Assembly: GCA_035533095.1 (NCBI GenBank) | Contig: DATLUM010000069.1 | Location: 1-53,319, forward strand | Reading direction: 5' to 3' | DNA length: 53,319 nt | DNA from: Acidimicrobiales bacterium | Lineage (GTDB): Bacteria; Actinomycetota; Acidimicrobiia; Acidimicrobiales; Palsa-688 | Part shown: positions 12,387-52,131 of the stretch, one piece after another | How positions within the stretch are numbered: the stretch's first letter is position 1 | How the letters are laid out: every line of letters starts with the position of its first letter | Made by a program: the position numbers and the translations under genes | Notes under the pieces: generated by a model | Told to the model about the DNA's origin: nothing | Seen by the model: only the letters and a program-made list of their open reading frames with translations | The model's database searches: none

Positions 12387-13126
12387 AGAGGCGTGTGCTG
12401 TAAGAGGAAGGCCCGGATCTTCTGAGCGGTGGTCGCGTGGTTGCCGGCCCAATCATCCAGTAGCTCGGCGCGGGGTGCGAGGTCCACGATTTCCTCGGCT
12501 ACAGCCCGCGGGTGGAACTCGTCGTTGCCCGGCAGCACGAGCAACGGCACGGGGCACGACCGCACGAACTCCCGGCTGGCGCCGAAGACGAACTCACCCC
12601 CGAACATGTTCTCCCTGAACGATTCGAGCACTCCCGGATCGATCCCGCGGCGGGAACGCAACTCCGACGCCCACGAGTCGAACATGCCGACGAAGTTTTG
12701 GAGGTTGTCCGAGCTGAGGCCGATCGGGTTCTGCAAGACGGCGGCAGCGACGCGCTCCGGGGCTGCCGCGCACAACGCGAGCGCATAGGTGGAACCGATG
12801 CAGCCTCCCATCGCGTGCACCCTGTCGAAGCCGAGGTGGTCCATCAGCGCAAGGTGGTCACTCGTGTAGGTGTGCCACCCGTCGGATGCTGATACGTCCC
12901 CGGCGGACCCTCCCGCGTTGCGTTGGTCCATGCTCACTACGCAGAAGGCGTCCGCCAGAGCGGTGGTCGGGTCGATCCACGGGAGGCGCTCACCCGATGC
13001 TCCGGGCCGCTCCCTCCACAGCATCGCGATCGAATGCATGCCGCCTGGTGCGAACAGCAACAGGGGAAACCCGCTGCCGTACTCGTCAAAACGGATGGAA
13101 GCGCCGGGTCGCTCGAAGGTGGGCAC
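12383..13126 (-). CDS. Alpha/beta hydrolase with a Cys nucleophile
   Basis: 247 residues from GTG 13126. The fold is shown by LLLFAPGGMHS (oxyanion region), MDQRNAGGSAG, the nucleophile elbow GGCIGSTYAL, VLPGNDEFHP (acid) and GNHATTAQKI (His). The elbow has Cys109 where most hydrolases have Ser, as in dienelactone hydrolases. It probably cleaves a small ester, lactone or C-C bond in the cytoplasm. GTG 13126 was chosen because the hydrolase fold starts right after it and TATCGT (13135-13140, minus strand) lies 8 nt upstream; the open frame extends further but into the divergent gene's promoter. Confidence 0.88.
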   Translation of the reverse strand: MPTFERPGASIRFDEYGSGFPLLLFAPGGMHSIAMLWRERPGASGERLPWIDPTTALADAFCVVSMDQRNAGGSAGDVSASDGWHTYTSDHLALMDHLGFDRVHAMGGCIGSTYALALCAAAPERVAAAVLQNPIGLSSDNLQNFVGMFDSWASELRSRRGIDPGVLESFRENMFGGEFVFGASREFVRSCPVPLLVLPGNDEFHPRAVAEEIVDLAPRAELLDDWAGNHATTAQKIRAFLLQHTPL

Positions 13127-13151
13127 GGGCCAGGACGATACAACCGGCCGG

Positions 13152-13157
13152 TACGCT
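13152..13157 (+). promoter_or_regulatory. -10 box (TACGCT) 6 nt before GTG 13164
   Basis: TACGCT fits TANNNT and is spaced exactly 6 nt from the GTG, the geometry of leaderless actinobacterial genes. It supports GTG 13164 over ATG 13176 as the start. Confidence 0.45.
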
Positions 13158-13163
13158 TCGGGT

Positions 13164-13736
13164 GTGGAGCGAGCAATGACCGGCTTCCACCGGGACGACG
13201 CCGGCGATTGGGTGGCGGAGCTCGAATGCGGCCACAACCAGCACGTCAGACATCGCCCGCCGTTCCAGCTGCGCGAATGGGTGGTCGACGACGACTCGCG
13301 CAGGGCGCGTGTCGGAGCACCTCTGGACTGCCCTCTGTGCGATCAGGGCGAGCTACCGGTCCATGTGCGCCACGTGCGCAACTCACCGGTATGGGACGCT
13401 TCGTCGATGCCCGACGCCTTGCGCCACCGGCACAAGTTGGGGCGCGCCACCTGGGGGGTGCTCCACGTCGAGTGCGGCAGGCTGCGCTTCGACGAATCGC
13501 AGCTGCGCGCCGGCGAGGTGCGGGTGATCCCCCCGGGCGTCGAACACGAAGTCGAGCCGCTCGGTGAGGTCGAACTCTGGATCGAGTTCCTTGCTGTCGA
13601 CAGGGAGCCGGCCGCAGGGATGGCCGGTCGGGACGAGGGCGGAGATCCCGCATGCTGGGCGGGACTTCTGTGCCCTGAGTGCGGGGCGGTCATGGATGGT
13701 GGCGCGCACAAGCCGGGGTGCCCCGACGGCGGCTGA
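13164..13736 (+). CDS. DUF3565-DUF1971 fusion protein (TehB-N-like cupin)
   Basis: 190 residues in two parts. Residues about 5-70 (MTGFHRDDAGDWVAELECGH, HVRHRPPF, LDCPLCDQGELP) match the small DUF3565 family, including a CxxC. Residues about 75-155 (NSPVWDASSMPDALRHRHK, WGVLHVECGRLRF, VIPPGVEHEVEPLGEVELWIEF) are a DUF1971-type cupin, the domain found at the N-terminus of some tellurite-resistance proteins. The tail carries another Cys pair (LCPECGA). The cupin His residues could bind a metal. Function is unknown; a role in redox or toxic-anion response is only a suggestion from the domain family. Confidence 0.75.
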   Translation: MERAMTGFHRDDAGDWVAELECGHNQHVRHRPPFQLREWVVDDDSRRARVGAPLDCPLCDQGELPVHVRHVRNSPVWDASSMPDALRHRHKLGRATWGVLHVECGRLRFDESQLRAGEVRVIPPGVEHEVEPLGEVELWIEFLAVDREPAAGMAGRDEGGDPACWAGLLCPECGAVMDGGAHKPGCPDGG

Positions 13737-15399: not shown

Positions 15400-18222
15400 A
15401 TGAGCTGGGGACGCGGGAAGTCACGGTGTCGCGCCCGGTCGCTTTTCTGTGTGGCACTACTCGCCGCCGGTGGAGCAGCGATGCCGGCGGTGGCGCTCGG
15501 GACGGGAGGGGCGCTGCCCTCGCCGAGCGAGCCTCTGCCCGGGTCGGGCAGGATGCCCAACGGCTGGAAGCTCGACCCGGCAGGGACCCAGGTGCTCACC
15601 AACCGCGCAACGACGGGAGTGTGGATGTCCCCCACGGGCAGCGACATCTACGCCACGACTTCGGGGATCTTCGAGGAGGCCGTCGTCCACGTCGACGGCA
15701 CGACACTGCTCCCGACGCCGACACTCGTATCGGACACGTTCCAAGGCGTCGCCGGGGACGCAGCCGGCAATATCTGGGTGTCGGGCGGCTCCGCCGATCG
15801 TGTGTGGCAGTTCAAGGCGGTAGGTCCCGCTCTCGTGGATGCCCGGCTGGCGGGCCCCGCACCGGACGCACCCAACAAGGGGATCCCGGTCACCGGCTAC
15901 CCGGGCAACATGCTGCTCGAGGGCTCGAAGCTCTTCGTCGCGGGCAACGTCAGCGTCCCCTCCAAGGTGGCGGCCGCCGAGTCAGGTGGGACGCCCTGCC
16001 CGACGTCGTCGAAGATCTGCTCGGTCGTCAATGTCGTCGACGTCTCCAATCCCGACGCTTCCTCCCCGGCTGTCAAAGCCATCCCCGTCGGCCGGGACGC
16101 CTACGGCATGGCCTACCGGCCCGGCGCATCCGCTTCGGACCCGTCGACCCTTTACGTGACCAACTGGGCGGACCAAACCGACCCCGCCCGCAGCGGCGGA
16201 GTGGGGACAGGAACGGTTTCGGTGGTCCGAGTCAACCCTGACGGATCCGGCAACGAGGTCCAGGTGGTGCCTGTCGGCCTGGAGCCGACCGGAATCGCCC
16301 TCTCCCCAGACGGCAGCACCGCGGTGGTCACCGACGCGGGTTCCGACACGATCAGCGTGTTGAAGGTAGATCCCGACACGGGTGACCTCGCGGTGACTGA
16401 GACGCTCCCTGTTCTGGGCAACGGAGTGCCGCTGGGAGCGTCACCCGTGTCGGCCGCGTTCTCGTCGGACGGGTCTCTGCTGTTCGCCGCCCTGTCGGGA
16501 ATGAACGCGGTCGAGGTCTTCTCTGCGGCGAACGGTCACGTCTCCGCCATGCACCAGAAGCTGCGGGACACGACGTTCGACGGGCGGCCGGTCCCGGATC
16601 TCACCGTCGGTGGAACGTTCATCCCGACGGGTTGGTATCCCGACGCCATGGCCTACGGCAAGGCACCGGGAGGCGGCCCGCGTCTAGTGGTGGCGAACTT
16701 GCGCGGTGAGGGAGCAGGGCCCGGGTACTACGGCCAGACCGAGCCGCTGGTCGGCTCCTCGACCGAAGGCAGCCTGTCGGTCATAGACCTGCCCGGATCG
16801 TCAGCGTCCGGCGAGTGGAACGCCTGGACGAAGCGCTTCGTCGAGGACGATCAGCTCGCGCCACTGTGGGCCCACGACGTCGCCGACCCGGCGTCCAACC
16901 CATGTCTGCCGGCACCATTGCCCGACGGCTCCAGCATCACGAGCGGGGTGATCTGCGGGGTCGCGAAAGGCAGTGTCGACCCGAAGTCGATCCACGTGGT
17001 GATCATCGAGGCGGAGAACAAGACCTTCGACTCGTACTTCGGGGACACGGGAGCGGTTCTCCGCAATGCCGACGCCGACCCGCAGTGGACGGAGTACGGC
17101 GACGCCGTCACGACCAACCAGCACAATCTCGCCGAGACCTACAACGTCGACGACAACTTCTGGAACGAAGGAGCCGAGGCGTCGACGCTCGGCCACAGCT
17201 GGCTGTCCGGCGCGTACACCACTCTCGACCGTGAACTGACGTGGGGTCCCGACTATTCGCAGAACCTGCGCGGGCAGCGATCCAACGGGCAGTACGCGGC
17301 GGGTTCGCCCGGAAGCCTCTCAGGGCCCACCGATCCGGATGTGAACGCCCAGGAGTCGGTCATGCTGAACCCGAGGCAACTGTTGATCGACCAGGCTTAC
17401 GGAGCCGGCATGACCGTACGGTTGTTCGGGACCGACACCCGGCCAGGGTCGCCGGCTGTCGCCGCGGGCAACCAGGTGCCCCAGGACCTGTGGGGAGAGT
17501 CGGGCTCCGACGTCAGCACCGATCTGGCGTGGCCGGACGTCGATCGCGCCGCCATGTTCCTGCACGGTTCGACCGTCTCGCACGCATGGGATGTTCTCGA
17601 GGGGCAGACACCTCCGAAGTGGTACGGCCAGACGATCCAGTTCAAGCCGGCGGACAAGCAGAAGTTCACCCTCGACGGGTGGGACTCGGCGTACGCGTCG
17701 TGCACGGCCGGCGGCAGGTCCGACGACCAGTGCCAGCAGAGCATGCCCAACCTCGTGTACATGCAGCTGCCCGAGAACCACACCTACGACGTGTCCAACG
17801 TATTCAACCCCCAGGACCCGACGCCCCAATCGATGGTCGCCGACAACGACTACGCGATCGGCGAGATAGTCCAAGGCCTGTCGAAGAGCCCCTTCTGGTC
17901 GCACACTCTCGTGATGATCACCGAGGACGACAACCAGTTCACGGGCGATCACGCGGACATCCACCGCACCTTCCTGCTCACCGCCGGCGGCATCGCCCGG
18001 CCGCTCGGGAGCGAGGGGCTGGCAGCCACCCAGGTGGGTTCGTTTGCGTCGGTGGACAAGACCACCGAGGCGCTTCTCGGCCTGCCACCCATGACCCTTT
18101 TCGACGCTAGGGCGGTACCCCTCCAACAGATCGTCTCCGATCAGGTTGGGACCAACAAGGCCGCCTACACGGCGGTGTACCCACCCACTCCCTTCCTCTC
18201 CGGTCGGGTTCCCGGCCAGTAG
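15400..18222 (+). CDS. Secreted YVTN beta-propeller fused to a phosphoesterase (alkaline-phosphatase-like) domain
   Basis: 940 residues. The signal peptide is about residues 10-33 (FCVALLAAGGAAMPAVALG). Residues about 40-490 carry YVTN/NHL-type propeller blades (GVWMSPTGSDIYATT, GIALSPDGSTAVVTDAGSD, VSAAFSSDGSLLFAAL). From about residue 530 the phosphoesterase domain begins with HVVIIEAENKTFDSYFGD and continues to TEDDNQFTGDHADIHRTFLL, as in the PF04185-type acid phosphatase/phospholipase C superfamily. Exported, possibly a phosphate-scavenging or cell-surface enzyme. No Shine-Dalgarno is evident before ATG 15400, but it is the start that gives a good signal peptide. A 10-bp palindrome TCCTGCAGGA (15359-15368) lies in the gap before it. 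Confidence 0.88.
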   Translation: MSWGRGKSRCRARSLFCVALLAAGGAAMPAVALGTGGALPSPSEPLPGSGRMPNGWKLDPAGTQVLTNRATTGVWMSPTGSDIYATTSGIFEEAVVHVDGTTLLPTPTLVSDTFQGVAGDAAGNIWVSGGSADRVWQFKAVGPALVDARLAGPAPDAPNKGIPVTGYPGNMLLEGSKLFVAGNVSVPSKVAAAESGGTPCPTSSKICSVVNVVDVSNPDASSPAVKAIPVGRDAYGMAYRPGASASDPSTLYVTNWADQTDPARSGGVGTGTVSVVRVNPDGSGNEVQVVPVGLEPTGIALSPDGSTAVVTDAGSDTISVLKVDPDTGDLAVTETLPVLGNGVPLGASPVSAAFSSDGSLLFAALSGMNAVEVFSAANGHVSAMHQKLRDTTFDGRPVPDLTVGGTFIPTGWYPDAMAYGKAPGGGPRLVVANLRGEGAGPGYYGQTEPLVGSSTEGSLSVIDLPGSSASGEWNAWTKRFVEDDQLAPLWAHDVADPASNPCLPAPLPDGSSITSGVICGVAKGSVDPKSIHVVIIEAENKTFDSYFGDTGAVLRNADADPQWTEYGDAVTTNQHNLAETYNVDDNFWNEGAEASTLGHSWLSGAYTTLDRELTWGPDYSQNLRGQRSNGQYAAGSPGSLSGPTDPDVNAQESVMLNPRQLLIDQAYGAGMTVRLFGTDTRPGSPAVAAGNQVPQDLWGESGSDVSTDLAWPDVDRAAMFLHGSTVSHAWDVLEGQTPPKWYGQTIQFKPADKQKFTLDGWDSAYASCTAGGRSDDQCQQSMPNLVYMQLPENHTYDVSNVFNPQDPTPQSMVADNDYAIGEIVQGLSKSPFWSHTLVMITEDDNQFTGDHADIHRTFLLTAGGIARPLGSEGLAATQVGSFASVDKTTEALLGLPPMTLFDARAVPLQQIVSDQVGTNKAAYTAVYPPTPFLSGRVPGQ

Positions 18223-18240
18223 CTCTGCTCGTCACCGACA

Positions 18241-18253
18241 CCCGGTATCCGGG
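18241..18253 (+). terminator. Short hairpin CCCGG-TAT-CCGGG
   Basis: A perfect 5-bp stem with a 3-nt loop, 18 nt after the phosphoesterase stop and 33 nt before the next start. It could be a weak terminator; there is no T-run. Confidence 0.3.
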
Positions 18254-18285
18254 GTTGGTGTGGCATGGGGCGCGAGGATGCCCCC

Positions 18286-18747
18286 ATGGCAGAGATCTAT
18301 CAGCACGTCCCCCACCCACACGTGGCCCTCCGCTCGACGAAGGGCCCCGCGAAGACCGTCGACCAGAGGCGACTCAACCACCCGAATCCGGTCATCCGTC
18401 TCAACGCGCGGGTTGGGCTGCGGATCACGATCGTGGTCGGCACCATGTGGTGTGCGTACATGTTCACGCTCATCGCGCTGATCAGCGCCCCGTCAGCGTT
18501 CAAGTCCGGCAATACCACGATCATCATCGCCTGGGTTTCCTCGAACTTCCTGCAGCTGATCCTGCTGCCGATCATCATCGTCGGGCAGAACATCCAGGCG
18601 AAGGCGGCCGACCAGAGGTCGGAGGACACCTACAACGACGCCGATGCCATCCTCCACGAGGCTCTGCAGATCCAGCAGCACCTGCAGGCCCAGGATGCAG
18701 AGCTCGAGAAGATCCTGGGGATGGTCCGGGGCGCCGCCTCCAGCTGA
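18286..18747 (+). CDS. DUF1003-like membrane protein
   Basis: 153 residues. Two transmembrane helices are plain: ITIVVGTMWCAYMFTLIALI (about 45-65) and TTIIIAWVSSNFLQLILLPI (about 75-97). The segment after helix 2, IIVGQNIQAKAADQRSEDTYNDAD, and an amphipathic C-terminal helix (LQIQQHLQAQDAELEKIL) match the layout of DUF1003 proteins. No enzymatic motif. ATG 18286 is preceded by GAGG with 8-nt spacing; ATG 18265 is an alternative seven codons upstream. It begins a four-gene island of small non-enzymatic proteins. Confidence 0.68.
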   Translation: MAEIYQHVPHPHVALRSTKGPAKTVDQRRLNHPNPVIRLNARVGLRITIVVGTMWCAYMFTLIALISAPSAFKSGNTTIIIAWVSSNFLQLILLPIIIVGQNIQAKAADQRSEDTYNDADAILHEALQIQQHLQAQDAELEKILGMVRGAASS

Positions 18748-18845
18748 GTACGTGTGTTGAGCGCAGCGTGACGCAAGACCGAGTGCTACCGGTTACCACT
18801 GGGTAGAACAACGGTTCAGGCGGAAATCGAGCATTGGAGGACTGC

Positions 18846-19349
18846 ATGACGAGCCAGACCGGCGCGGCCCAGCGGATCACCGATCGAATCGTGGGAAAGG
18901 CCAAGAAGATCGCAGGGTCCATTATCTCGGACCGGGCACTTCAGCGCGAGGGCGAACTGCACGAGCAGAAGGCCGACGCCGCTATCCAGGCGGAAAGGGA
19001 GGCGGCCGAAGCAGAGCGGAATGCGGCCCGGGCGGAGATACGCGAGCGGGAACGGGAGCTCACGATCGAGGAGCAGCAACTCCGCAAGGACCAGCTAATC
19101 GACGCACGAGAGACGGTTCACGAGCGTGAAATCGCTCAACAGGAGGCCCAGATAGAGTCGGACCTGGAGCGGTCGACGCGCCAGGCCGAATCCCGGGAGC
19201 ATGCCGGTGAGGCTGCTCTCGCGCACAACCAGGCTGCCGCCGCCGCCGAGCGGGCACAGGAGTTACGCGAGGCCGCGAAGGCAGAAGGCGAAGCAGATCG
19301 GGCGGAGCGTCGGGCTGAGGCCTACGACGACGTGGCGGACCGCAAGTAA
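18846..19349 (+). CDS. CsbD-like protein with long charged coiled coil
   Basis: 167 residues. Residues 10-45 (RIVGKAKKIAGSIISDRAL followed by QREGELHEQKADA) have the small CsbD-like core found in general-stress proteins. The rest is one long, highly charged Glu/Arg/Ala-rich helix predicted as coiled coil. No membrane segment or signal. GGAGG at 18836-18840 supports ATG 18846. Upstream (18748-18845) there is a GGGTA element reminiscent of SigB/SigF-type -10 boxes but without a good -35. The next gene (19389) encodes a paralogue, so duplication is likely. Role in stress or surface aggregation is inferred only from the family. Confidence 0.7.
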   Translation: MTSQTGAAQRITDRIVGKAKKIAGSIISDRALQREGELHEQKADAAIQAEREAAEAERNAARAEIRERERELTIEEQQLRKDQLIDARETVHEREIAQQEAQIESDLERSTRQAESREHAGEAALAHNQAAAAAERAQELREAAKAEGEADRAERRAEAYDDVADRK

Positions 19350-19388
19350 TCGCTGGTTCGCAACCGACACAACAAGGAGTGCTGACAA

Positions 19389-20012
19389 GTGCAGATCCAG
19401 GACATCCCTCGGGCCTACGTGCGGACGACACTTCGTGCCATCCGCATGCCGATCGATCTCAGCGAGTCCATCGCGAGGCGAAACGGAGACGATCGACGGC
19501 CCTGGCCTCCAGCGGTCGTATTCGACGCCGTCCAGGGGGGGATCAAGAAGGCGATCGGTTCGCTCCTACGTGACGAGCGGCTGGTCGAAGAAGGCAAGTT
19601 GAACCAGGCGGCCGCCAAGGAACAGCGCCAGGCTCTATTGCTCGGGGCGGTCGCGGACTCCAGACGCGAGCGCGCAGAGGAGCGTTTCGAGGAGCGCTCT
19701 GAACAGGTCGCCAAGGCGCGCAACGCGACGCACGCCAGGGCGGGCACCGAGAAGAAGACCGCCGAACGCGTGGCCGGCGCCAAGCGGCGGAGCCTCGAGT
19801 CAAAGGCGGAGAAGCTGGCCGAGGACGACGCACGGCTGGACGCGGTGGCCCAGGAATCGCTGGCGCGCAAGGAACGAGCGTCCCGGGCGCGCCAGATCGA
19901 GACCGAGCGGCGTGCCATAGCGAAGGAGCGGCGCGCCGTGGCCAGCGAAGCGGCGGTGGCTGATCTCGACGCAGAGATCGAGGCGAGCAAGCAGGCGCGC
20001 CAGTCGGATTGA
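19389..20012 (+). CDS. CsbD-like coiled-coil protein, paralogue of the upstream gene
   Basis: 207 residues from GTG 19389, with AAGGAG at 19374-19379. Residues 45-80 (GGIKKAIGSLLRDERLVEEG followed by KLNQAAAKEQ) align with the CsbD-like core of the protein at 18846. The N-terminus adds about 40 residues beginning MQIQDIPRAYVRTTLRAIRM, which could be an amphipathic targeting helix. The remainder is a charged coiled coil rich in ERR, AKA and KAE patterns. Only 39 nt separate it from the preceding gene, so they are one operon. A strong hairpin follows at 20030-20049. Molecular role unknown. Confidence 0.7.
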   Translation: MQIQDIPRAYVRTTLRAIRMPIDLSESIARRNGDDRRPWPPAVVFDAVQGGIKKAIGSLLRDERLVEEGKLNQAAAKEQRQALLLGAVADSRRERAEERFEERSEQVAKARNATHARAGTEKKTAERVAGAKRRSLESKAEKLAEDDARLDAVAQESLARKERASRARQIETERRAIAKERRAVASEAAVADLDAEIEASKQARQSD

Positions 20013-24610: not shown

Positions 24611-25849
24611 CTACGGATGGGTTGCCTCGGCGGCCGTGCCTCCGCCCGGTGTGGGCGTGAACGACAACCGGAGGCGAAGCGGGCCGGCGATCCCGCCGAG
24701 CGGCGACCGCCACTCTGGAGGCTCCGCGACCGTCACGGCGGGCATCGCCGCGGCGAGCAGCGGCAGCGCCTCCTGCATCTCCGCTCTGGCGAGGTTGGCG
24801 CCGAGGCAGTGGTGCGCCCCGCCCCCGAAGCTGACATGAGACTCGTGTTCGGCCGTGGGATCGAACCCGTCGGGATCGTCGTAAACCGCAGGATCGTGGT
24901 TGGCCGCCACCAGCGACAGTGACACGAGTGTGCCGGCCGGTATCAGCCACTCTCCCACCTCCAGGTCGGTGGTCGTGACCCTCGGGACGACGGACACGAC
25001 GCCGGCGAAGCGCATGATCTCGTCGACGGCCTTCGGGGCTAGGCCCGGGTCGTGGGCGAGGGCCTCCCAGTGGTCGTGATGCTCGGCGAAGATCGTCATG
25101 GCGACGGCCAGCTGGTTGCGGGTGGTGTCGTAGCCGGCGAACAAGAGACCGCCGAGGAGGGACAGGAGCTCGGAGTCGTTGAGCCGGTCGGAGCCGTCGC
25201 GGGCGGTGATGAGCTCGGTTACGAGATCGTCGCGGGGGTTCTTCCGCCGGTCCGCAACGAGCCCTGTCAGGTATTCGCTCATCTGGCTCTGGGCCGCCTC
25301 GACCTCGGCGCGGTACTGAAACAACTCCAAGGACAGCAGGTGGGTCAAAGCGTCCCCCCACTTCGCGAACAGGCCGTGGTCCTTGCGGGGAACGCCCATG
25401 AGGTGGGCGATGACCTGCACCGGGTAATGGTCGGCAAACTCCGACATGAACTCGCACTCGCCTCGGCCCGAGAAGGCGGCTGTCAGCTCGCGTACGAGCT
25501 GGCGCATGAACTCCCTGTGGCCGTCGGCGGCCCTGGGGGTGAACGACCTCGAGACGAGACGGCGGAGCCTCGTGTGATCGTCACCCTCGAGCCCGAGGAG
25601 GGAGGCGGCGGCGAGATCGTAGAGAGGCCCGTCGTTGACTCCCTGAAGGCGCAGGAGGTGAAGGAGCGAGCTGTGCAACGACCGCTCCCGGAGAAGCTCG
25701 TGAACCCCCGCCTTGTCTATGACCGACGCGCCGATCGGCGTCCGCAGAACGCTCGACTCCTTGCGTAGGGCAGCGACGTAGGGGTCGGGGTTCGTCTGGA
25801 AGTCCGGGTCGAACAGATCCAGGTATGGCGCTTCGGACAGCGGACGCAT
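24611..25849 (-). CDS. Cytochrome P450
   Basis: 412 residues, the usual size of a soluble bacterial P450. The haem-binding loop is FGGGAHHCLG with proximal Cys348, the I-helix has GGLLFAGYDTTRNQL (oxygen-activation Thr), and the ExxR motif is EIMR in KAVDEIMRFAG. It hydroxylates or otherwise oxidises a hydrophobic substrate using electrons from a ferredoxin; no ferredoxin gene is adjacent. No membrane anchor. It is divergent, with only 48 nt between, from a membrane-anchored orphan at 25898. A CAAAAT -10-like box stands 6 nt before ATG 25849. Confidence 0.95.
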   Translation of the reverse strand: MRPLSEAPYLDLFDPDFQTNPDPYVAALRKESSVLRTPIGASVIDKAGVHELLRERSLHSSLLHLLRLQGVNDGPLYDLAAASLLGLEGDDHTRLRRLVSRSFTPRAADGHREFMRQLVRELTAAFSGRGECEFMSEFADHYPVQVIAHLMGVPRKDHGLFAKWGDALTHLLSLELFQYRAEVEAAQSQMSEYLTGLVADRRKNPRDDLVTELITARDGSDRLNDSELLSLLGGLLFAGYDTTRNQLAVAMTIFAEHHDHWEALAHDPGLAPKAVDEIMRFAGVVSVVPRVTTTDLEVGEWLIPAGTLVSLSLVAANHDPAVYDDPDGFDPTAEHESHVSFGGGAHHCLGANLARAEMQEALPLLAAAMPAVTVAEPPEWRSPLGGIAGPLRLRLSFTPTPGGGTAAEATHP

Positions 25850-26569: not shown

Positions 26570-27217
26570 TCAGCCCCGAGATCTCGGTCCGTAGCGACCG
26601 ACCTGCAACGGGTCGGACCCCTCGGGGGCGGCAACTTCAACTATCCGCTCGGGCACGTCGTCGAACTCGGTGCGCAGGGCCCTCGACATGACCGCGTGCT
26701 GGAAGTACAGGGCGTTGATGTAGGTGAGCTCGAGGATCTCCTCGTCGGACAGATGCGACCGGAGGGCTTCGAACAAGCCGTCCGGCACCCGCCCGTGGTC
26801 GTAGACGAGGCAGTCCGTGTACGCAAGAACCAGGCGCTCGACCTCGTCGAAGCAACTGGCCGCCGGCCAGTGAGGCACGGCCTCGATCTTCTCCTCGAGG
26901 ACGCCGAGAGCCCTCAACGATTTGCAGTGCTGCGAGAAGACGAACTGGCTTTGCGAAGCCCACCCGACCCGCGTCTGGCCGAGCTCCCGGAGCACTGGGT
27001 CGAGCTTGCGTTCGGGGTTCCGGTAGACGCCGAAACCCTGGACCGAGTGCTCGAGGATGTCGGGGACCGCTGCGAAGACCGTCCACCAGTCGCCCGGTGA
27101 CCCCGACTCGGTGCCGGGTTGCCCGACGGGGTCGTCATCACCGAAGAGGTACTGGTACATCGCTCTGACGATCGGAGCCTTGGCTTCCGACCGCGGTACC
27201 TGGCGTAGTCGTGGCAT
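26570..27217 (-). CDS. Carboxymuconolactone decarboxylase (CMD/AhpD-like) family protein
   Basis: 215 residues. The helical CMD core appears in LGQTRVGWASQSQFVFSQHC and VERLVLAYTDCLV, then LSDEEILELTYINALYFQHA. AhpD enzymes carry a CxxC at the position where this one has SQHCK, so a single Cys is left and peroxidase activity as in AhpD is doubtful. The length exceeds single-domain CMD proteins (about 120). It is followed 18 nt downstream on the same strand by nothing and preceded by the VOC gene at 27236, so VOC and CMD genes are probably co-transcribed. Confidence 0.83.
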   Translation of the reverse strand: MPRLRQVPRSEAKAPIVRAMYQYLFGDDDPVGQPGTESGSPGDWWTVFAAVPDILEHSVQGFGVYRNPERKLDPVLRELGQTRVGWASQSQFVFSQHCKSLRALGVLEEKIEAVPHWPAASCFDEVERLVLAYTDCLVYDHGRVPDGLFEALRSHLSDEEILELTYINALYFQHAVMSRALRTEFDDVPERIVEVAAPEGSDPLQVGRYGPRSRG

Positions 27218-27235: not shown

Positions 27236-27778
27236 TCAGCTGAGCGCGCTGGCGCCAGCGGGGTCGTGGGCGACGTCGGATTCCGACAGGGTGCGTGTCC
27301 AGGCTGCGAACTCGAGCAGGATGCCGTCGGGGTCCTGGAAGTAGACCGACCTGACGAAAACTCCCGGATGCATGTCCTTGCTGACGCCCCACTCGCTGTC
27401 GTCGTGGTTGACGACCTCGCTGCACTCGATACCGGCCTCGCGCAGGCGTTCGGCGTAACCGTCGATCGCTTCCAGCGGCACGTTGAACGCGACATGGTTC
27501 ATGGAGCCGACAGCGGAGAGGATCTCGCCGGTGTCAGGACGTGCCGAAGGGGCGGTCACGCCCGGGACCGCCTCCGGGGCGTTGGGGAACCAGAAGAACG
27601 CGAGGCAGTCCCCGTTTCCGCAGTCGAAGAAGAAGTGCTGGCCCATGCCCGTCGGCAGCTCGATCGTCTTGACGAGTTTCATGCCAAGGACGTCCCGGTA
27701 GAAATGGACGGTCCGGTTCATGTCGCTGCAAACCAGTGCCAGGTGATTCACGCCGCGGAATTCAAAGGGCCGGGACAT
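27236..27778 (-). CDS. VOC family protein (glyoxalase/dioxygenase-like)
   Basis: 180 residues. GVNHLALVCSDMNRTVHFYR is the classic start of a VOC module with a metal-ligand His, MGQHFFFDCGNGDCLAFFWF follows, and the second half has MNHVAFNVPLEAIDGYAERL and YFQDPDGILLEFAAW with the C-terminal Glu ligand. This is a complete pair of beta-alpha-beta-beta-beta units, so a metal-dependent lyase, isomerase or dioxygenase is likely. GAGGAGG stands 6 nt before ATG 27778. It is 18 nt upstream of the CMD gene on the same strand. Confidence 0.9.
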   Translation of the reverse strand: MSRPFEFRGVNHLALVCSDMNRTVHFYRDVLGMKLVKTIELPTGMGQHFFFDCGNGDCLAFFWFPNAPEAVPGVTAPSARPDTGEILSAVGSMNHVAFNVPLEAIDGYAERLREAGIECSEVVNHDDSEWGVSKDMHPGVFVRSVYFQDPDGILLEFAAWTRTLSESDVAHDPAGASALS

Positions 27779-27857: not shown

Positions 27858-28721
27858 CTACTGCAGGTATTCGGGATAGTCGTTCGCGAAGCGTTCCATT
27901 GCGCCGATGGCTTCCCGGCTGGACTGCCAGGGCTTCACGAGGACGCGGGTGACGCCGGCGCCGGCGTAACCCTCGAGGTCTGCACGGCTCGAGACCGGCA
28001 GGCCCAGCGTGATCTCGACGTGCGGGTCGCGGCCGGCGGCTTCGCGCTGCGCCCGGATGCGGGCGAGGGACGCCGGGATCTCGTCGAGGGTGTGGTTCAT
28101 CGGTATCCAGCCGTCGCCGAGGAGGGCGGCCCGTCGGATCGCGGCGGGCCCGTCACCGCCGATGTGCATTGGAAGGGGCGACTGGACGGGCTTCGGCTCG
28201 AACATCACCGGGTCGAAATCGAAATGGCGCCCATGGTGCTCGACCTCGGATTCGATCCAGAGGCGCCGGCAGATCTCGATGGCCTCGTCGACGCGGCTTC
28301 CTCTCGACGAGAAGTCGAGGCCGGCGGCGCGCCACTCCGCTTGCAGCCAGCTCGCCCCGATTCCAAGCTCGACACGGCCTTGCGAGACGACGTCGAGTGT
28401 GGCGACGGCCCTCGCCGTGGTGAAGGGGTGGCGTAGCCCGATGTTGAACACCTGGGTCCCGAACCGGACCCGCTCGGTACAGCCGGCGAGCATCGCCATG
28501 TAGACGAAGGGATCGAACACCGGGGTGTCGGGACGGATGGGCGGGTGATCGGATCCGTGCATCGGGCTGCCGCTCATGGAAACGGGGAGGACGAGATGTT
28601 CGGGGAGCCACACGGACTCGAACCCGAGCCGGTCGGCGGTCTGGGTGGCTTCCTTCCAGACACGCGGGTTGAGCGTCCCGAGCGAGATTCCGATCTTCAG
28701 GAGTCCCGCGGCGCGAGGCAT
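27858..28721 (-). CDS. LLM class F420-dependent oxidoreductase
   Basis: 287 residues from ATG 28721. The luciferase-like TIM barrel is shown by LKIGISLGTLNPRVWKEATQ, LGFESVWLPEHLVLP, TERVRFGTQVFNIGLRHP, VELGIGASWLQAEWRAAGL and PLPMHIGGDGPAAIRRAA. These features are typical of actinobacterial F420-dependent oxidoreductases rather than FMN luciferases. It would reduce or oxidise an unknown substrate with coenzyme F420. ATG 28721 is fixed by a -10 box exactly 6 nt upstream; longer frames read into the divergent gene. It shares a 22-nt symmetric promoter region with the SRPBCC gene at 28744. Confidence 0.9.
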   Translation of the reverse strand: MPRAAGLLKIGISLGTLNPRVWKEATQTADRLGFESVWLPEHLVLPVSMSGSPMHGSDHPPIRPDTPVFDPFVYMAMLAGCTERVRFGTQVFNIGLRHPFTTARAVATLDVVSQGRVELGIGASWLQAEWRAAGLDFSSRGSRVDEAIEICRRLWIESEVEHHGRHFDFDPVMFEPKPVQSPLPMHIGGDGPAAIRRAALLGDGWIPMNHTLDEIPASLARIRAQREAAGRDPHVEITLGLPVSSRADLEGYAGAGVTRVLVKPWQSSREAIGAMERFANDYPEYLQ

Positions 28722-28726
28722 CGCCG

Positions 28727-28738
28727 GAGGGTACCCTC
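28727..28738. promoter_or_regulatory. Symmetric bidirectional promoter palindrome (GAGGGTACCCTC)
   Basis: A perfect 12-bp palindrome in the 22-nt gap between two divergent genes. Reading right, TACCCT (28732-28737) ends 6 nt before ATG 28744. Reading left, TACCCT (28733-28728, minus strand) ends 6 nt before ATG 28721. Each strand therefore has a TANNNT -10 box at leaderless spacing, and the two boxes overlap by their TA bases. Confidence 0.6.
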
Positions 28739-28743
28739 GCCCC

Positions 28744-29157
28744 ATGGCAAGCATCCAAGTAGAAGGCGAGATCCCCGCTCCGCTCGACGATGTCTGGAAG
28801 ATCGTCTCCGACTTCGGCGGTTTTCTCGAGGCGCGGGGTATCCCCGTTGAGGTCGAGGGCCAGGGAATCGGCGCGCTGCGCAAGCTGATGCTCGGCTCGA
28901 GCGTGCTCATCGAGCGCTTGGAGAGCATCGACGAGGACTCGCACTCGACGTCGTACTCGGTCGTGGAAGGACCACTGCCCGCAAAGGACTACCTCGGGAT
29001 CATTCGAGTGGAGGCCGCCGGCGACTCGACCACCCGTATCGTTTGGTCCTCGACGTTCGAGGCGGCCGGCGAGATGAGCGAGGCGGACCTCGCCGAGATC
29101 ATCACCGGGGCCTACCGCAGAGGCATCAAGGGCCTGCAGCGGCACTTCGGGGGCTGA
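28744..29157 (+). CDS. SRPBCC family protein (polyketide cyclase/MxaD-like)
   Basis: 137 residues. The START-like fold is seen in IQVEGEIPAPLDDVWKIVSD, LIERLESIDEDSHSTSYSVV, DYLGIIRVEAAGDSTTRIVW and the long C-terminal helix IITGAYRRGIKGLQRHF. These proteins hold a hydrophobic ligand in a helix-grip cavity; ligand unknown. No signal or membrane segment. The ATG lies 6 nt after the -10 box of the shared symmetric promoter. A strong hairpin follows the stop by 2 nt. Confidence 0.88.
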   Translation: MASIQVEGEIPAPLDDVWKIVSDFGGFLEARGIPVEVEGQGIGALRKLMLGSSVLIERLESIDEDSHSTSYSVVEGPLPAKDYLGIIRVEAAGDSTTRIVWSSTFEAAGEMSEADLAEIITGAYRRGIKGLQRHFGG

Positions 29158-30565: not shown

Positions 30566-31655
30566 CGATGAACTCGTCGACCATCTCGAGCACCACCGCC
30601 CTGGCCGGGCGGACCTTGTCGAGGGATCCGACCACTTGGCCGACGAAGTACGTCGCCAACTCGCGTGCCTCGGAGTCCGGACGGTTCGAGGCCTGGTGGA
30701 TCCGGTACTGCGGGTCGCCGATCAGCGCTGTCTGTAGAGGCATCCCGAGCGGATCGGGCGTGTCGGGGCGATCCCACTCGTCGGTCCATGCCGTGCGCAG
30801 CATCCGAGCCGGTTTCCCGGTGAGCGACCGCGAACGGACGGTGTCGGAGGACCCCGCCTTCAGGAACTTCTCCTTCACCACAGGCGGGGTCTCGGCTTCC
30901 TCAGTAGTGAGCCACACCGACCCGCACCACACACCCTCGGCACCGAGCGCGAAGGCCGCGGCCATCTGGCGGCCGCGGGCGATGCCGCCGGCGGCCAGCA
31001 CCGGTACCGGCGCGACAGCGTCCACCACCTCGGGAACGAGCACCATCGTGGCGACCTCGCCCGTGTGCCCTCCGGCCTCGGTGCCCTGGGCGACGATGAG
31101 GTCCACGCCGGCTTCCGCGTGACGCAGAGCGTGCTTCTTGGAGCCGGCAAGAGCGGCAACGACCACGCCGTGCGAATGAGCGCGCTCCACGAGGTCCGCC
31201 GGCGGCGGGCCGAGGGCGCTTGCGACGAGCCGGATGCGGTGGTCGAAGGCGACGTCCAGGAGCGGTCCGTAGCCCTTCGGGGAGACGTTGAGACCCGCCC
31301 CGGGGGAAAGGCGTTCCTCGTCGGTCGGCACGGGGATGCCGTACCGGGCGAGCATGTCGTCGAGGAACGCCTTGTGCTCCGCCGGAAGGAGGGCCCGCAC
31401 CTGCTTGGCGTCGATGCCCCCCTCTTCCGCACCGACGTACTTGGGTGGCAGCAGAAGGTCCACCCCGTAGGGCTTGCCGTCGGTGTTGTCCTCGATCCAG
31501 GAAAGCTCGGTTTCGAGAAGCTCCGGGCTGTGCCCCACCGCCCCGAGTACGCCGAAGCCGCCCGCCTTCGAAACGGCCGCAACGACGTCGCGGCAGTGGC
31601 TGAAGGCGCATATCGGGAACTCCACGCCGAGCATCTCGGCCACGCGCGTCCTCAT
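30516..31655 (-). CDS. Nitronate monooxygenase / 2-nitropropane dioxygenase family protein
   Basis: 379 residues from ATG 31655. The FMN TIM-barrel family is shown by FPICAFSHCRDVVAAVSKAG, the loop AQGTEAGGHTGEVA with the catalytic-type His, and AAGGIARGRQMAAAFALGAE for phosphate binding. Nitronate monooxygenases oxidise alkyl nitronates such as propionate-3-nitronate; related proteins act as enoyl reductases or trans-enoyl-type enzymes, so the exact reaction is open. ATG 31655 was preferred over the longer frame because TTGACA-N18-TACCGT ends 6 nt before it. It is divergent from the thioesterase gene and shares its promoter region. Confidence 0.9.
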   Translation of the reverse strand: MRTRVAEMLGVEFPICAFSHCRDVVAAVSKAGGFGVLGAVGHSPELLETELSWIEDNTDGKPYGVDLLLPPKYVGAEEGGIDAKQVRALLPAEHKAFLDDMLARYGIPVPTDEERLSPGAGLNVSPKGYGPLLDVAFDHRIRLVASALGPPPADLVERAHSHGVVVAALAGSKKHALRHAEAGVDLIVAQGTEAGGHTGEVATMVLVPEVVDAVAPVPVLAAGGIARGRQMAAAFALGAEGVWCGSVWLTTEEAETPPVVKEKFLKAGSSDTVRSRSLTGKPARMLRTAWTDEWDRPDTPDPLGMPLQTALIGDPQYRIHQASNRPDSEARELATYFVGQVVGSLDKVRPARAVVLEMVDEFIDAVRSMDHLVEGDPVG

Positions 31656-31661
31656 GGGCCG

Positions 31662-31706
31662 ACGGTACGTCGTTATTGACTGATATGTCAATCGAGACGT
31701 TAGAGT
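31662..31706. promoter_or_regulatory. Divergent promoter pair sharing a -35 palindrome
   Basis: ATTGAC-TGATAT-GTCAAT (31675-31692) is a perfect inverted repeat with a 6-nt spacer. Its left arm gives the rightward -35 TTGACT, 19 nt before TAGAGT (31701-31706), which stands 6 nt before GTG 31713. Its right arm gives the leftward -35 TTGACA (31691-31686, minus), 18 nt before TACCGT (31667-31662, minus), which stands 6 nt before ATG 31655. The palindrome could also be the operator of a TetR protein, perhaps the one at 32182. Confidence 0.65.
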
Positions 31707-31712
31707 CGGACC

Positions 31713-32147
31713 GTGCCCGAGCCACTGTCACAAGAGCAGCAACAGGAGCGACGCCTGGCGGTTCGCGAGATCATGCCGAAGACCCCTTTCCTGGCCGGGC
31801 TCGGCATCGTGTTCGAGAGATACGAGCCCGACGAGGTGACCATCAGGCTGCCTTTCCGGGAGGACCTCACCAACGACGGCACCTACTTCCATGGCGGCGT
31901 CATCGCATCGGTCATCGACACGACGGGAGCGGCCGCAGCGTGGTCCAACCACGACTTCGACAAGGGAAGCCGCGCCTCGACGGTGTCCATGACCATCCAG
32001 TATGTGGGGGCCGCCAAGAAGTCCGACCTGATATGCCACGCGCGGACCGTGCGCCGGGGCAAGGAGCTCACGTTCACCGAGATCACCGCGACCGATGCCG
32101 ACGGTCGCACCGTCGCCCACGGCGTGCAGACCTACCGGATCGTGTGA
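31713..32147 (+). CDS. PaaI family hotdog thioesterase
   Basis: 144 residues. The hotdog fold is shown by LGIVFERYEPDEVTIRLPF, then DGTYFHGGVIASVIDTTGA, where the HGG plus Asp pattern is the active site of PaaI-type acyl-CoA thioesterases, and SMTIQYVGAAKKSDLICHAR. It hydrolyses acyl- or aryl-CoA in the cytoplasm. The GTG start is fixed by TAGAGT 6 nt upstream. It is followed after 34 nt by a TetR gene and then by a thiolase-like gene, so an acyl-CoA degradation operon under local repression is likely. Confidence 0.9.
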   Translation: MPEPLSQEQQQERRLAVREIMPKTPFLAGLGIVFERYEPDEVTIRLPFREDLTNDGTYFHGGVIASVIDTTGAAAAWSNHDFDKGSRASTVSMTIQYVGAAKKSDLICHARTVRRGKELTFTEITATDADGRTVAHGVQTYRIV

Positions 32148-49725: not shown

Positions 49726-50835
49726 TCAGATAGCGGTCGCCGCGTCCAGGTCGAGCGCGTGCCTGGCATGGCGGTGGGCCATGACCATGAACATCTCGTC
49801 GCCGCGCTCGGTCCGCTCGACGAGCATCGAAGCCGCGATCGCCATGATCAGCCCGGACCAGGTGCCGCGCCTGTAGTCGTGCCAGCAGCGATCCCATCCG
49901 TAACCTTGCACGCCCGCGGCAACCAGGCGGTCGTGGTACAGCCGCACCAGCCCCCCTTCGTGGGCCCGCCGGTCATCGAGCAGGAGCCCCGCCCCGATGA
50001 AGTAGGCGACGTCCGCCAGCGCGGGCCCGTGGGTGACTGTCTGCCAGTCGAGGACGGTCACCGACGCGCCCGTCCCCTCACCCGGCTTGCTGCCCGAAAC
50101 GGCGGGTGATCCGGCGAAGAGGAGGTTGTCGAGACGGTAGTCGCCGTGCACGACGGTCCACGGCTCGGTGTCGCCGAGGATGAAGTCCGACAGCTTGGCG
50201 AACAGCTGGTCGCCCGCCTCGTGCACCTCCGGACCGAGCGACTCCGCATAACGCTCGCGGAATCCGTCCCACAACTGAGGTAGCAGACCCAGGTAGAACA
50301 GCTGCTGGCCCGAACGGTCGCGGTGGAGCCACGGCAGCTCCTTGAGCGACGGGTCGTCCCACAGTGGCGCGTGCAGGCCGACCAGCTCGTCGATGGCGGT
50401 GACGGCGTCGGCGTGCGAGCAACCGGCCAGCTGGTCCCCGGGTTGGGCCGGGCTCAGGTCCTCGAGCAGCAGGACGAAGCTGGCTGTCTCGACTTCGATG
50501 TCCGCGTAATAGACGCGCGGCGTGCGAACGTCGAGGCGGGGGGCGAGCTGCTGATAGAAGCGGACCTCGTTTTCGTAGCTGCCGAGGGACAGGGCGGTCG
50601 CGCGGCTGATGGGGTCGGCCGAGGGGAGCTTGGCGATGATCGATCGGGGTGGATCGGTCCGGATGTCCGGGCCCGGGGCGTACGTCAGGATGAGACGGAA
50701 GGTGTCGCACATCTGTCCTGTGCCGACCGGGGCGGTGTCGACCGACTCGACTTTCACGTCCCCGAGCGTCTCGGCGAGGGCTGCAGACAGCCAGGCGGGC
50801 GTCAGGGAATCTGGGGTGTCAGCGATGCTCGGCAC
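49726..50835 (-). CDS. APH-type phosphotransferase (ACAD10/11-type kinase domain)
   Basis: 369 residues from GTG 50835. The aminoglycoside-phosphotransferase/choline-kinase fold has the ATP-binding SIIAKLPSADP, the hinge FVLLLEDLSPAQPGDQLAG, the catalytic loop VVHGDYRLDNLLF (Asp and Asn) and VLDWQTVTHGP (metal Asp). In ACAD10/11 the same fold phosphorylates the 4-hydroxyl of 4-hydroxyacyl-CoA. Its end touches the end of the ACAD gene at 48502. The start is fixed by a TAATGT box 6 nt upstream. Substrate is inferred, not shown. Confidence 0.9.
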   Translation of the reverse strand: MPSIADTPDSLTPAWLSAALAETLGDVKVESVDTAPVGTGQMCDTFRLILTYAPGPDIRTDPPRSIIAKLPSADPISRATALSLGSYENEVRFYQQLAPRLDVRTPRVYYADIEVETASFVLLLEDLSPAQPGDQLAGCSHADAVTAIDELVGLHAPLWDDPSLKELPWLHRDRSGQQLFYLGLLPQLWDGFRERYAESLGPEVHEAGDQLFAKLSDFILGDTEPWTVVHGDYRLDNLLFAGSPAVSGSKPGEGTGASVTVLDWQTVTHGPALADVAYFIGAGLLLDDRRAHEGGLVRLYHDRLVAAGVQGYGWDRCWHDYRRGTWSGLIMAIAASMLVERTERGDEMFMVMAHRHARHALDLDAATAI

Positions 50836-50841
50836 GCCGAG

Positions 50842-50847
50842 ACATTA
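50842..50847 (-). promoter_or_regulatory. -10 box (TAATGT) 6 nt before the kinase start
   Basis: On the minus strand TAATGT ends 6 nt before GTG 50835. TGTCGT lies 17 nt further upstream as a possible poor -35. The promoter lies in the 27 nt between the MFS stop and this gene. Confidence 0.45.
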
Positions 50848-50862
50848 CGTATTCCGCGCGGG

Positions 50863-52131
50863 CTACGACAGGGCAACCGCCGGGACGCCGGCGCCGGCTG
50901 TCTCGTCGACGTCACGCCCGCTCGTCTCGGGGAGGAGCAAGGCCACGACGGGGATCGCCACCAGCGGGCCCAACGCCAGGATCCCGACCGCATCAGAAAG
51001 GCCCTTGGTCCCCGCGATCAGAACGCCGCCGGCGACGAAGCCGACGCATTGCCCCATCACCTTCGCGGCTCCGGCCGTCGAGTTGCCAAGCGCCCGAAGG
51101 CTCGTCGGGAACAGCTCGGTCCCGTACGCGCCGAGCGCGGGCCAGGCGCCGAACCCACCGACGTACGTGAGCGCGAGCGCGCCGAACAGCTCAGGCGCGC
51201 CGTGGGCGATGAAGAAGAGCAGGTAGGTTCCGGTGACGCCGGCGGCGAGGAAGCCGCAACCCACGGCCTTGCGCCCCAGGCGGTCGCTCAGGGAACCGGC
51301 GATGCCGAGTACGGGTATCGCCAGCGCTCCCGCGGCCACGAGGATGAGGTTCGCGGCAGACGTCGAGAGGTGGCGCTGAGACTCGAAGAAATCGATGACG
51401 AAGACCTGCGCCTGGGTCGTGAGGTTGATCAGAAAGGCGATCGCGCACACGAGGAGGAGACTGCGCAGGTGCGGAGGACGCGCGATTTCGGCCCACCTCG
51501 ACCACGCCTTGGTCTCGGCGATGCGCAGGTATCGACTGCTCTCGGGAAGCCGCCGGCGCAGCCACACGGCGACGAGAAGGACTGGAACGGCGGCGCCGTA
51601 CAGCCACCGCCAGGAGATGCCGAGCGGTGCGAGCACGACCCCGTACAGCAACGACCCGAAGCCGGCGCCCAGGATGTCCAGCGTGGCAAGGAAGCCGAAC
51701 CCGAACCCACGTGCCCCCGCCGGCAGTTCTTCCGCGATAACGGTCCAGGTGAGCGAGATCTCCGTGGCAAGGAAGAGCCGCGCCGCGAACTGGAACCCCG
51801 CGAACGCGCCGATGGTCGGTGCAACGGCCGTCGCCGCGGTCGCGATGGTGTAGCCGGTGATCGACACCAGCAGCACCCGCCGGCGACCGTGCCGGTCCGC
51901 CCTTCTTGCGACGAAGATCGCGGGCAGGGCCCCGAGATACAGAAGGCTCAGCCACAGCGAAGCCGAGGACTGGGAGAGCCCGAAGCTGTGGCGGATGTGC
52001 GGAAGGGCGAAGATGACGACGTTGAGGTCGTAGCCCTCGAAGAAGCTCGCCCATCCGAGCAGCGCCAGGAGCTGCCAGTGCGACGGTTCGAGCAGACGGG
52101 CGGGCTCGAGCAGTTTCCCCAGCCGGCTCAC
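50863..52131 (-). CDS. MFS transporter
   Basis: 422 residues with about 12 transmembrane helices. The first cytoplasmic loop has ARRADRHGRRRVLLVS, the MFS signature D-R-x-G-R-R, and the sixth-seventh loop is long and charged (LRRRLPESSRYLRIAETKAW). PETSGRDVDE near the end matches sugar/metabolite-type MFS proteins. It probably moves an organic solute by proton coupling. GTG 52131 was chosen because the transporter pattern starts there; it lies 1 nt after the AurF-like stop, so the two genes are one operon. The longer open frame upstream is the reading of that neighbour in another frame. Confidence 0.9.
   Translation of the reverse strand: MSRLGKLLEPARLLEPSHWQLLALLGWASFFEGYDLNVVIFALPHIRHSFGLSQSSASLWLSLLYLGALPAIFVARRADRHGRRRVLLVSITGYTIATAATAVAPTIGAFAGFQFAARLFLATEISLTWTVIAEELPAGARGFGFGFLATLDILGAGFGSLLYGVVLAPLGISWRWLYGAAVPVLLVAVWLRRRLPESSRYLRIAETKAWSRWAEIARPPHLRSLLLVCAIAFLINLTTQAQVFVIDFFESQRHLSTSAANLILVAAGALAIPVLGIAGSLSDRLGRKAVGCGFLAAGVTGTYLLFFIAHGAPELFGALALTYVGGFGAWPALGAYGTELFPTSLRALGNSTAGAAKVMGQCVGFVAGGVLIAGTKGLSDAVGILALGPLVAIPVVALLLPETSGRDVDETAGAGVPAVALS

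What the first reader, a model, noticed from the sequence alone, without database searches (positions are those of the whole stretch)
28722..28743. Mirror-symmetric bidirectional leaderless promoter in a 22-bp gap
GAGGGTACCCTC is a perfect palindrome exactly centred between two divergent ATGs. Each strand reads TACCCT ending 6 nt before its own ATG, so both the LLM oxidoreductase and the SRPBCC gene appear to be driven leaderless from overlapping -10 boxes. Divergent transcription from symmetric -10 sequences is known in bacteria; this is an unusually compact case in which the symmetry extends to both start codons.
Basis: partly seen in the sequence, partly recalled or inferred. Interest (0 to 1): 0.72.

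Follow-up and report, generated by a model that had tools for sequence, protein, structure and literature searches.

The report
Compact two-way promoter between divergent genes
A 22-base gap between two genes that point away from each other appears to hold one shared promoter that starts both messages right at their first codons; this is of a known kind, and it recurs in related bacteria.

Summary
Each strand reads TACCCT ending 6 nt before its ATG; the two hexamers share the central TA. The genome has a strong leaderless signal: TANNNT ends 6-8 nt before the start at 112 of 674 called genes, and TACCCT is the second commonest such hexamer. Three of five SRPBCC homologues in the family also carry TANNNT 6-7 nt before the same ATG. 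Most likely this is a bidirectional leaderless promoter with start sites 23 bp apart, one of three spacings already reported as common. The perfect palindrome is incidental: in 44 sites of this architecture, bases outside the searched A-NNN-TA-NNN-T core are not mirrored beyond chance. No relative keeps this gene pair, so conservation could not be tested here, but the architecture recurs: 44 sites in 127 low-background genomes of the order against 11 for a one-sided control, with coding ORFs on both sides in about half of the sites inspected. No transcription data exist. A likely real, new member of a known kind; modest interest.

The parts
28722..28743 (.). 22-bp gap between the two divergent start codons; the proposed bidirectional promoter
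   Evidence: read directly
28727..28738 (.). perfect palindrome GAGGGTACCCTC, exactly centred in the gap
   Evidence: full mirroring judged incidental
28732..28737 (+). -10 box TACCCT for the SRPBCC gene, ending 6 nt before its ATG
   Evidence: genome-wide TANNNT signal at 6-8 nt
28728..28733 (-). -10 box TACCCT for the LLM gene, ending 6 nt before its ATG; shares the TA at 28732-28733 with the other box
28744..29157 (+). SRPBCC gene (Polyketide_cyc2, PF10604), 137 aa; predicted transcription start at 28744
   Evidence: start supported by homologues
27858..28721 (-). LLM-class F420-dependent oxidoreductase gene (TIGR03619, PF00296), 287 aa; predicted transcription start at 28721
28698..28700 (-). 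CTG codon (residue 8 of LLM) at the place where orthologues have their start codon

Best explanation
The 22-bp gap is a compact bidirectional promoter. RNA polymerase with the housekeeping sigma factor can recognise a TANNNT -10 box (TACCCT) in either orientation. The boxes overlap by the shared TA, so T-12/A-11 of one is A-11/T-12 of the other. Transcription is predicted to start at the A of each ATG, 23 bp apart on opposite strands, giving leaderless mRNAs for SRPBCC (+) and LLM (-), the latter perhaps continuing into the glyoxalase-family and CMD genes behind it. Only one polymerase should fit at a time, so the two directions compete. Shown: sequence anatomy, genome-wide leaderless spacing signal, recurrence of the architecture. 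Inferred: transcription in both directions, exact starts, competition.
For: TANNNT ends 6/7/8 nt before candidate ATG starts 22/25/17 times in 822 kb of this genome, against about 0.3 or less expected at each. TACCCT is the second commonest hexamer there, 8 of 112. Three of five family homologues of SRPBCC have TATGCT 6-7 nt before the same ATG. The architecture is enriched in the order: 152 sites against 62 reversed controls; 44 against 11 one-sided controls in 127 low-background genomes. 17 of 35 inspected sites have coding ORFs starting at both ATGs by a strict rule. SD-like arms are 12 nt from the starts, off this genome's 5-8 nt peak. A distance of 23 bp is a reported common spacing of bidirectional promoters (PMC12825309).
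Against: No transcription data. Once the SRPBCC promoter and the 22-bp gap are given, the LLM-side box needs only one more base (T at -7), a chance of roughly 1 in 6. LLM orthologues start 7 codons further in. Both frames are open across the gap. No -35-like element was seen by eye. The gene pair is not kept in any relative found.
Confidence: 0.72

Rival explanations
1. One-directional leaderless promoter: only SRPBCC is driven from TACCCT. LLM is transcribed from elsewhere, for example from inside the SRPBCC gene, and the match on its side comes from the shared TA plus one chance base.
For: The SRPBCC half is leaderless in three homologues that lack the mirrored A. LLM orthologues use a start 7 codons downstream. 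The one-sided control shows that such half-chance sites exist: 11 against 44.
Against: LLM needs a promoter, no SD lies at a working distance, its only canonical start codon after the gap is the ATG at exactly the leaderless distance, and about three quarters of such sites in the order are expected to be genuine on both sides.
Confidence: 0.17
2. Leadered genes: the GGAGG/GAGGG arms of the palindrome are ribosome-binding sites of mRNAs that start further upstream, inside the opposite gene, or LLM starts at another codon (CTG 28700, or in-frame ATG 28745 or 28754).
For: GGAGG is a Shine-Dalgarno core. LLM orthologues start at or next to residue 8. Both frames are open across the gap. Two SRPBCC homologues (G001, G011) have SD-like GAGGGG stretches.
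Against: The arms are 12 nt from the ATGs, while SD-like 5-mers peak at 5-8 nt in this genome. CTG is a poor start codon. The SRPBCC start is fixed by homologues.
Confidence: 0.08
3. Operator: the palindrome binds a dimeric regulator that represses both genes, and its overlap with the -10 boxes is secondary.
For: Perfect 12-bp palindrome at the centre of a divergent gap.
Against: The 12-mer is unique in the genome and near-copies are not clearly above control, 13 against 7. Mirrored bases outside the core are at chance level across 44 sites of the class. No regulator gene was seen next to the pair.
Confidence: 0.03

Closest known systems
Bacterial bidirectional promoters with a shared -10 element (Warman, Grainger and colleagues; PMC12825309, PMC10268837)
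   Same: Overlapping, near-symmetric -10 boxes on opposite strands; predicted starts 23 bp apart, a spacing reported as common after 18 bp.
   Different: Here both predicted starts are also the first bases of the start codons. Transcription is not shown. The 18-bp form, commonest in most bacteria, is not the one found here.
Leaderless TANNNT promoters of actinobacteria (PMC3160421, PMC3898074)
   Same: TANNNT ending 6-8 nt before ATG or GTG, no Shine-Dalgarno at a working distance.
   Different: Usually read in one direction. Here two are fused through one TA. A divergent pair with both mRNAs leaderless (prpD / Rv1129c) is described in M. tuberculosis; its spacing was not examined here.

Membership tests
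Bacterial bidirectional promoter (shared -10 element) | -10 boxes on opposite strands overlap in one of the known registers (starts 10, 18 or 23 bp apart) | tested here: met
   TACCCT on both strands sharing TA; predicted starts 28721 and 28744, 23 bp apart (spacing classes)
Bacterial bidirectional promoter (shared -10 element) | Transcription in both directions from the site | not testable with these tools
   no RNA data for this organism
Leaderless promoter | TANNNT ending 6-8 nt before the start codon in a genome that uses this signal | tested here: met
Leaderless promoter | No Shine-Dalgarno at a working distance | tested here: met
   arms 12 nt from the starts; genome peak at 5-8 nt
Leaderless promoter | mRNA 5' end at the first base of the start codon | not testable with these tools
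   needs 5'-end mapping
Operator palindrome of a regulator | Repeated copies in the genome, or mirrored bases kept beyond the -10 core | tested here: not met

The most novel reading that the evidence does not exclude
Leaderless divergent gene pairs in this bacterial order (Acidimicrobiales-like) repeatedly use a 22-24 bp module in which one TA step serves two promoters and both start codons, and favour the 23-bp register over the 18-bp register reported as commonest in most bacteria.
Probability: 0.4. Interest if true: 0.45.

Novelty: new member of a known kind. Interest (0 to 1): 0.3.

Why it matters
If confirmed by 5'-end mapping, such sites are extremely compact: 28 bp hold two promoters, two transcription starts and two start codons. 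In leaderless genomes the start codons mark the transcription starts, so bidirectional promoters could be recognised from sequence alone, and these sites would be simple natural objects for studying how polymerases compete for one site.

Tried and rejected
Conservation of the palindrome in orthologous pairs: no relative found keeps the pair. Operator hypothesis: no clear copies elsewhere and mirrored bases at chance level. Shine-Dalgarno reading of the arms: wrong distance. The 18-bp register as a leaderless arrangement in the order: 66 sites against 58 reversed controls; 15 in low-background genomes, near the one-sided control of 11. The preference for 23 over 18 bp was not seen at phylum level: 126 against 79 controls for gap 22 and 116 against 84 for gap 17, and 45 and 40 sites in genomes without control hits; no one-sided control was run there. 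A seemingly cross-family conserved site (G035 with G006/G027) was dropped because the flanking ORFs differ. My gene caller missed the SRPBCC gene and extended LLM to an upstream in-frame ATG, so this pair is not in its list of divergent pairs. The original 2021 bidirectional-promoter paper is not held; the spacing classes are taken from later papers of the same group.

Full report
OBSERVATION. Between CAT (28719-28721, start of the LLM oxidoreductase gene on the - strand) and ATG (28744-28746, start of the SRPBCC gene on the + strand) lie 22 bp, CGCCGGAGGGTACCCTCGCCCC, with the perfect palindrome GAGGGTACCCTC at the exact centre. TACCCT ends 6 nt before ATG on both strands, and the two hexamers overlap in the central TA. 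The composite pattern is found once in the window and in none of 100 shuffles, and once in the whole genome with no hit of the reversed control. The palindrome alone is not remarkable: 34 perfect 12-bp palindromes occur in the window.

THE GENES. LLM: TIGR03619 at 5.8e-71 (239 bits, cut-off 166.9) and PF00296. SRPBCC: PF10604 at 1.9e-20. Behind LLM on the same strand follow a glyoxalase-family gene (27236-27778) and a CMD-family gene (26570-27217), with a P450 gene further on (24611-25849). Ten of the twelve LLM relatives fetched from genome contigs are from Acidimicrobiaceae, Acidimicrobiales or unnamed actinomycetote MAGs, so the window is probably from Acidimicrobiia, Actinomycetota (inference).

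LEADERLESS SIGNAL IN THIS GENOME. In 822 kb of the same assembly I called 674 genes with a codon model. TANNNT ends 6, 7 or 8 nt before candidate ATG starts 22, 25 and 17 times, against about 0.3 or less expected at each distance from in-frame ATGs inside genes; for GTG 22, 16 and 10 times. 112 genes carry the signature; the commonest hexamers are TAGCCT (10) and TACCCT (8). That share, 17%, is close to the published actinobacterial average of 19.2% (PMC3160421). SD-like 5-mers peak 5-8 nt from starts in this genome, while the GGAGG/GAGGG arms here are 12 nt away. Each half is therefore a normal leaderless promoter for this organism.

START CODONS. SRPBCC homologues in the family (44-53% identity) align from residue 1. 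In G006, G020 and G027, all of one genus, TATGCT ends 6-7 nt before that ATG, so the + half looks leaderless there too; in G001 and G011 SD-like GAGGGG stretches precede the ATG instead. By eye, none of the three leaderless homologues has the mirrored A that would make a second box. For LLM, the orthologues start (GTG or ATG) at or next to the residue that is L8 here, where the window has CTG; the window's ATG adds 7 residues. A plausible history (inference) is that LLM came to lie next to a leaderless SRPBCC promoter and took a new start codon at the distance that the reverse reading required.

CONSERVATION. None of the LLM orthologues (3 in the family, 12 in genome contigs) has the SRPBCC gene upstream, and the SRPBCC homologues lie elsewhere.

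IS THE ARCHITECTURE A CLASS? I searched 198 genomes of the order with CAT-N6-A-N3-TA-N3-T-N6-ATG and with other patterns. All genomes: 152 sites against 62 for the reversed pattern. In 127 genomes without a control hit in any of five searches: 44 sites; 7/7 spacing 35; 18-bp register 15; two separate boxes at gap 30, 5; one-sided control (spacing 3 on one side) 11 (tallied). The gap-30 pattern has two more fixed bases, so it is not strictly comparable. About three quarters of the 44 are thus expected to be genuine on both sides. Of 35 sites read in their loci, 17 have ORFs with clear coding composition starting at both ATGs by a strict rule; several more, in G083, G182 and G206, have long ORFs on both sides but a lower third-position GC that fails the rule. 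One pair is kept in G113 and G176 and another in G006 and G027. The class looks real and the present site is not exceptional.

WHAT THE SYMMETRY MEANS. In 44 distinct sites, chosen by me mostly from GC-rich genomes, no mirrored position outside the searched A, TA and T exceeds chance (all P above 0.1). The full palindrome here (3 of 3 inner pairs, as in 3 of 44 sites) is therefore incidental; the working core is ANNNTANNNT, which is also what the search pattern fixed. An operator role is not supported.

RELATION TO KNOWN SYSTEMS. Bidirectional promoters with a shared -10 element are known, and the reported common distances between divergent starts are 18, 10 and 23 bp (PMC12825309). Leaderless starts here would be 23 bp apart, so the site fits the third class by anatomy. 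Leaderless TANNNT promoters are usual in actinobacteria, and a divergent pair with both mRNAs leaderless is described in M. tuberculosis (prpD and Rv1129c, PMC3898074). Literature searches joining leaderless and bidirectional promoters found no paper on this combination, within an open-access library only. In the order the 23-bp form is enriched and the 18-bp form is not; at phylum level the two are similar, so the preference is at most local.

VERDICT. Probably a functioning bidirectional leaderless promoter (0.72); the + half is better supported than the - half. New member of a known kind, interest 0.3.

Noticed in passing
window 27858-28721 (-), codons 1-8: LLM has a 7-residue N-terminal extension over its orthologues; the ancestral start position carries CTG instead of GTG or ATG.
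   Followed up: partly
window 13126-13164 and 31655-31713: Two more divergent gaps in the window (37 and 57 bp) with leaderless-type TANNNT on both sides but separate boxes.
   Followed up: no
L067 19038-19094: A 55-bp divergent gap in the same genome contains ACCGTACCCT, the same shared-TA core, with further TANNNT boxes towards the + gene.
   Followed up: no
G162:C1:4469321-4469350 and G035:C44:16336-16365: 7/7-spacing sites that are almost or fully palindromic over 30 bp, start codons included (CATCATCGTCACGCTAGCGTGACGATGATG is perfect).
   Followed up: no
window 18001-20000 and 50001-52000: Two stretches with strong AT skew (0.23 and 0.16) compared with most of the window.
   Followed up: no
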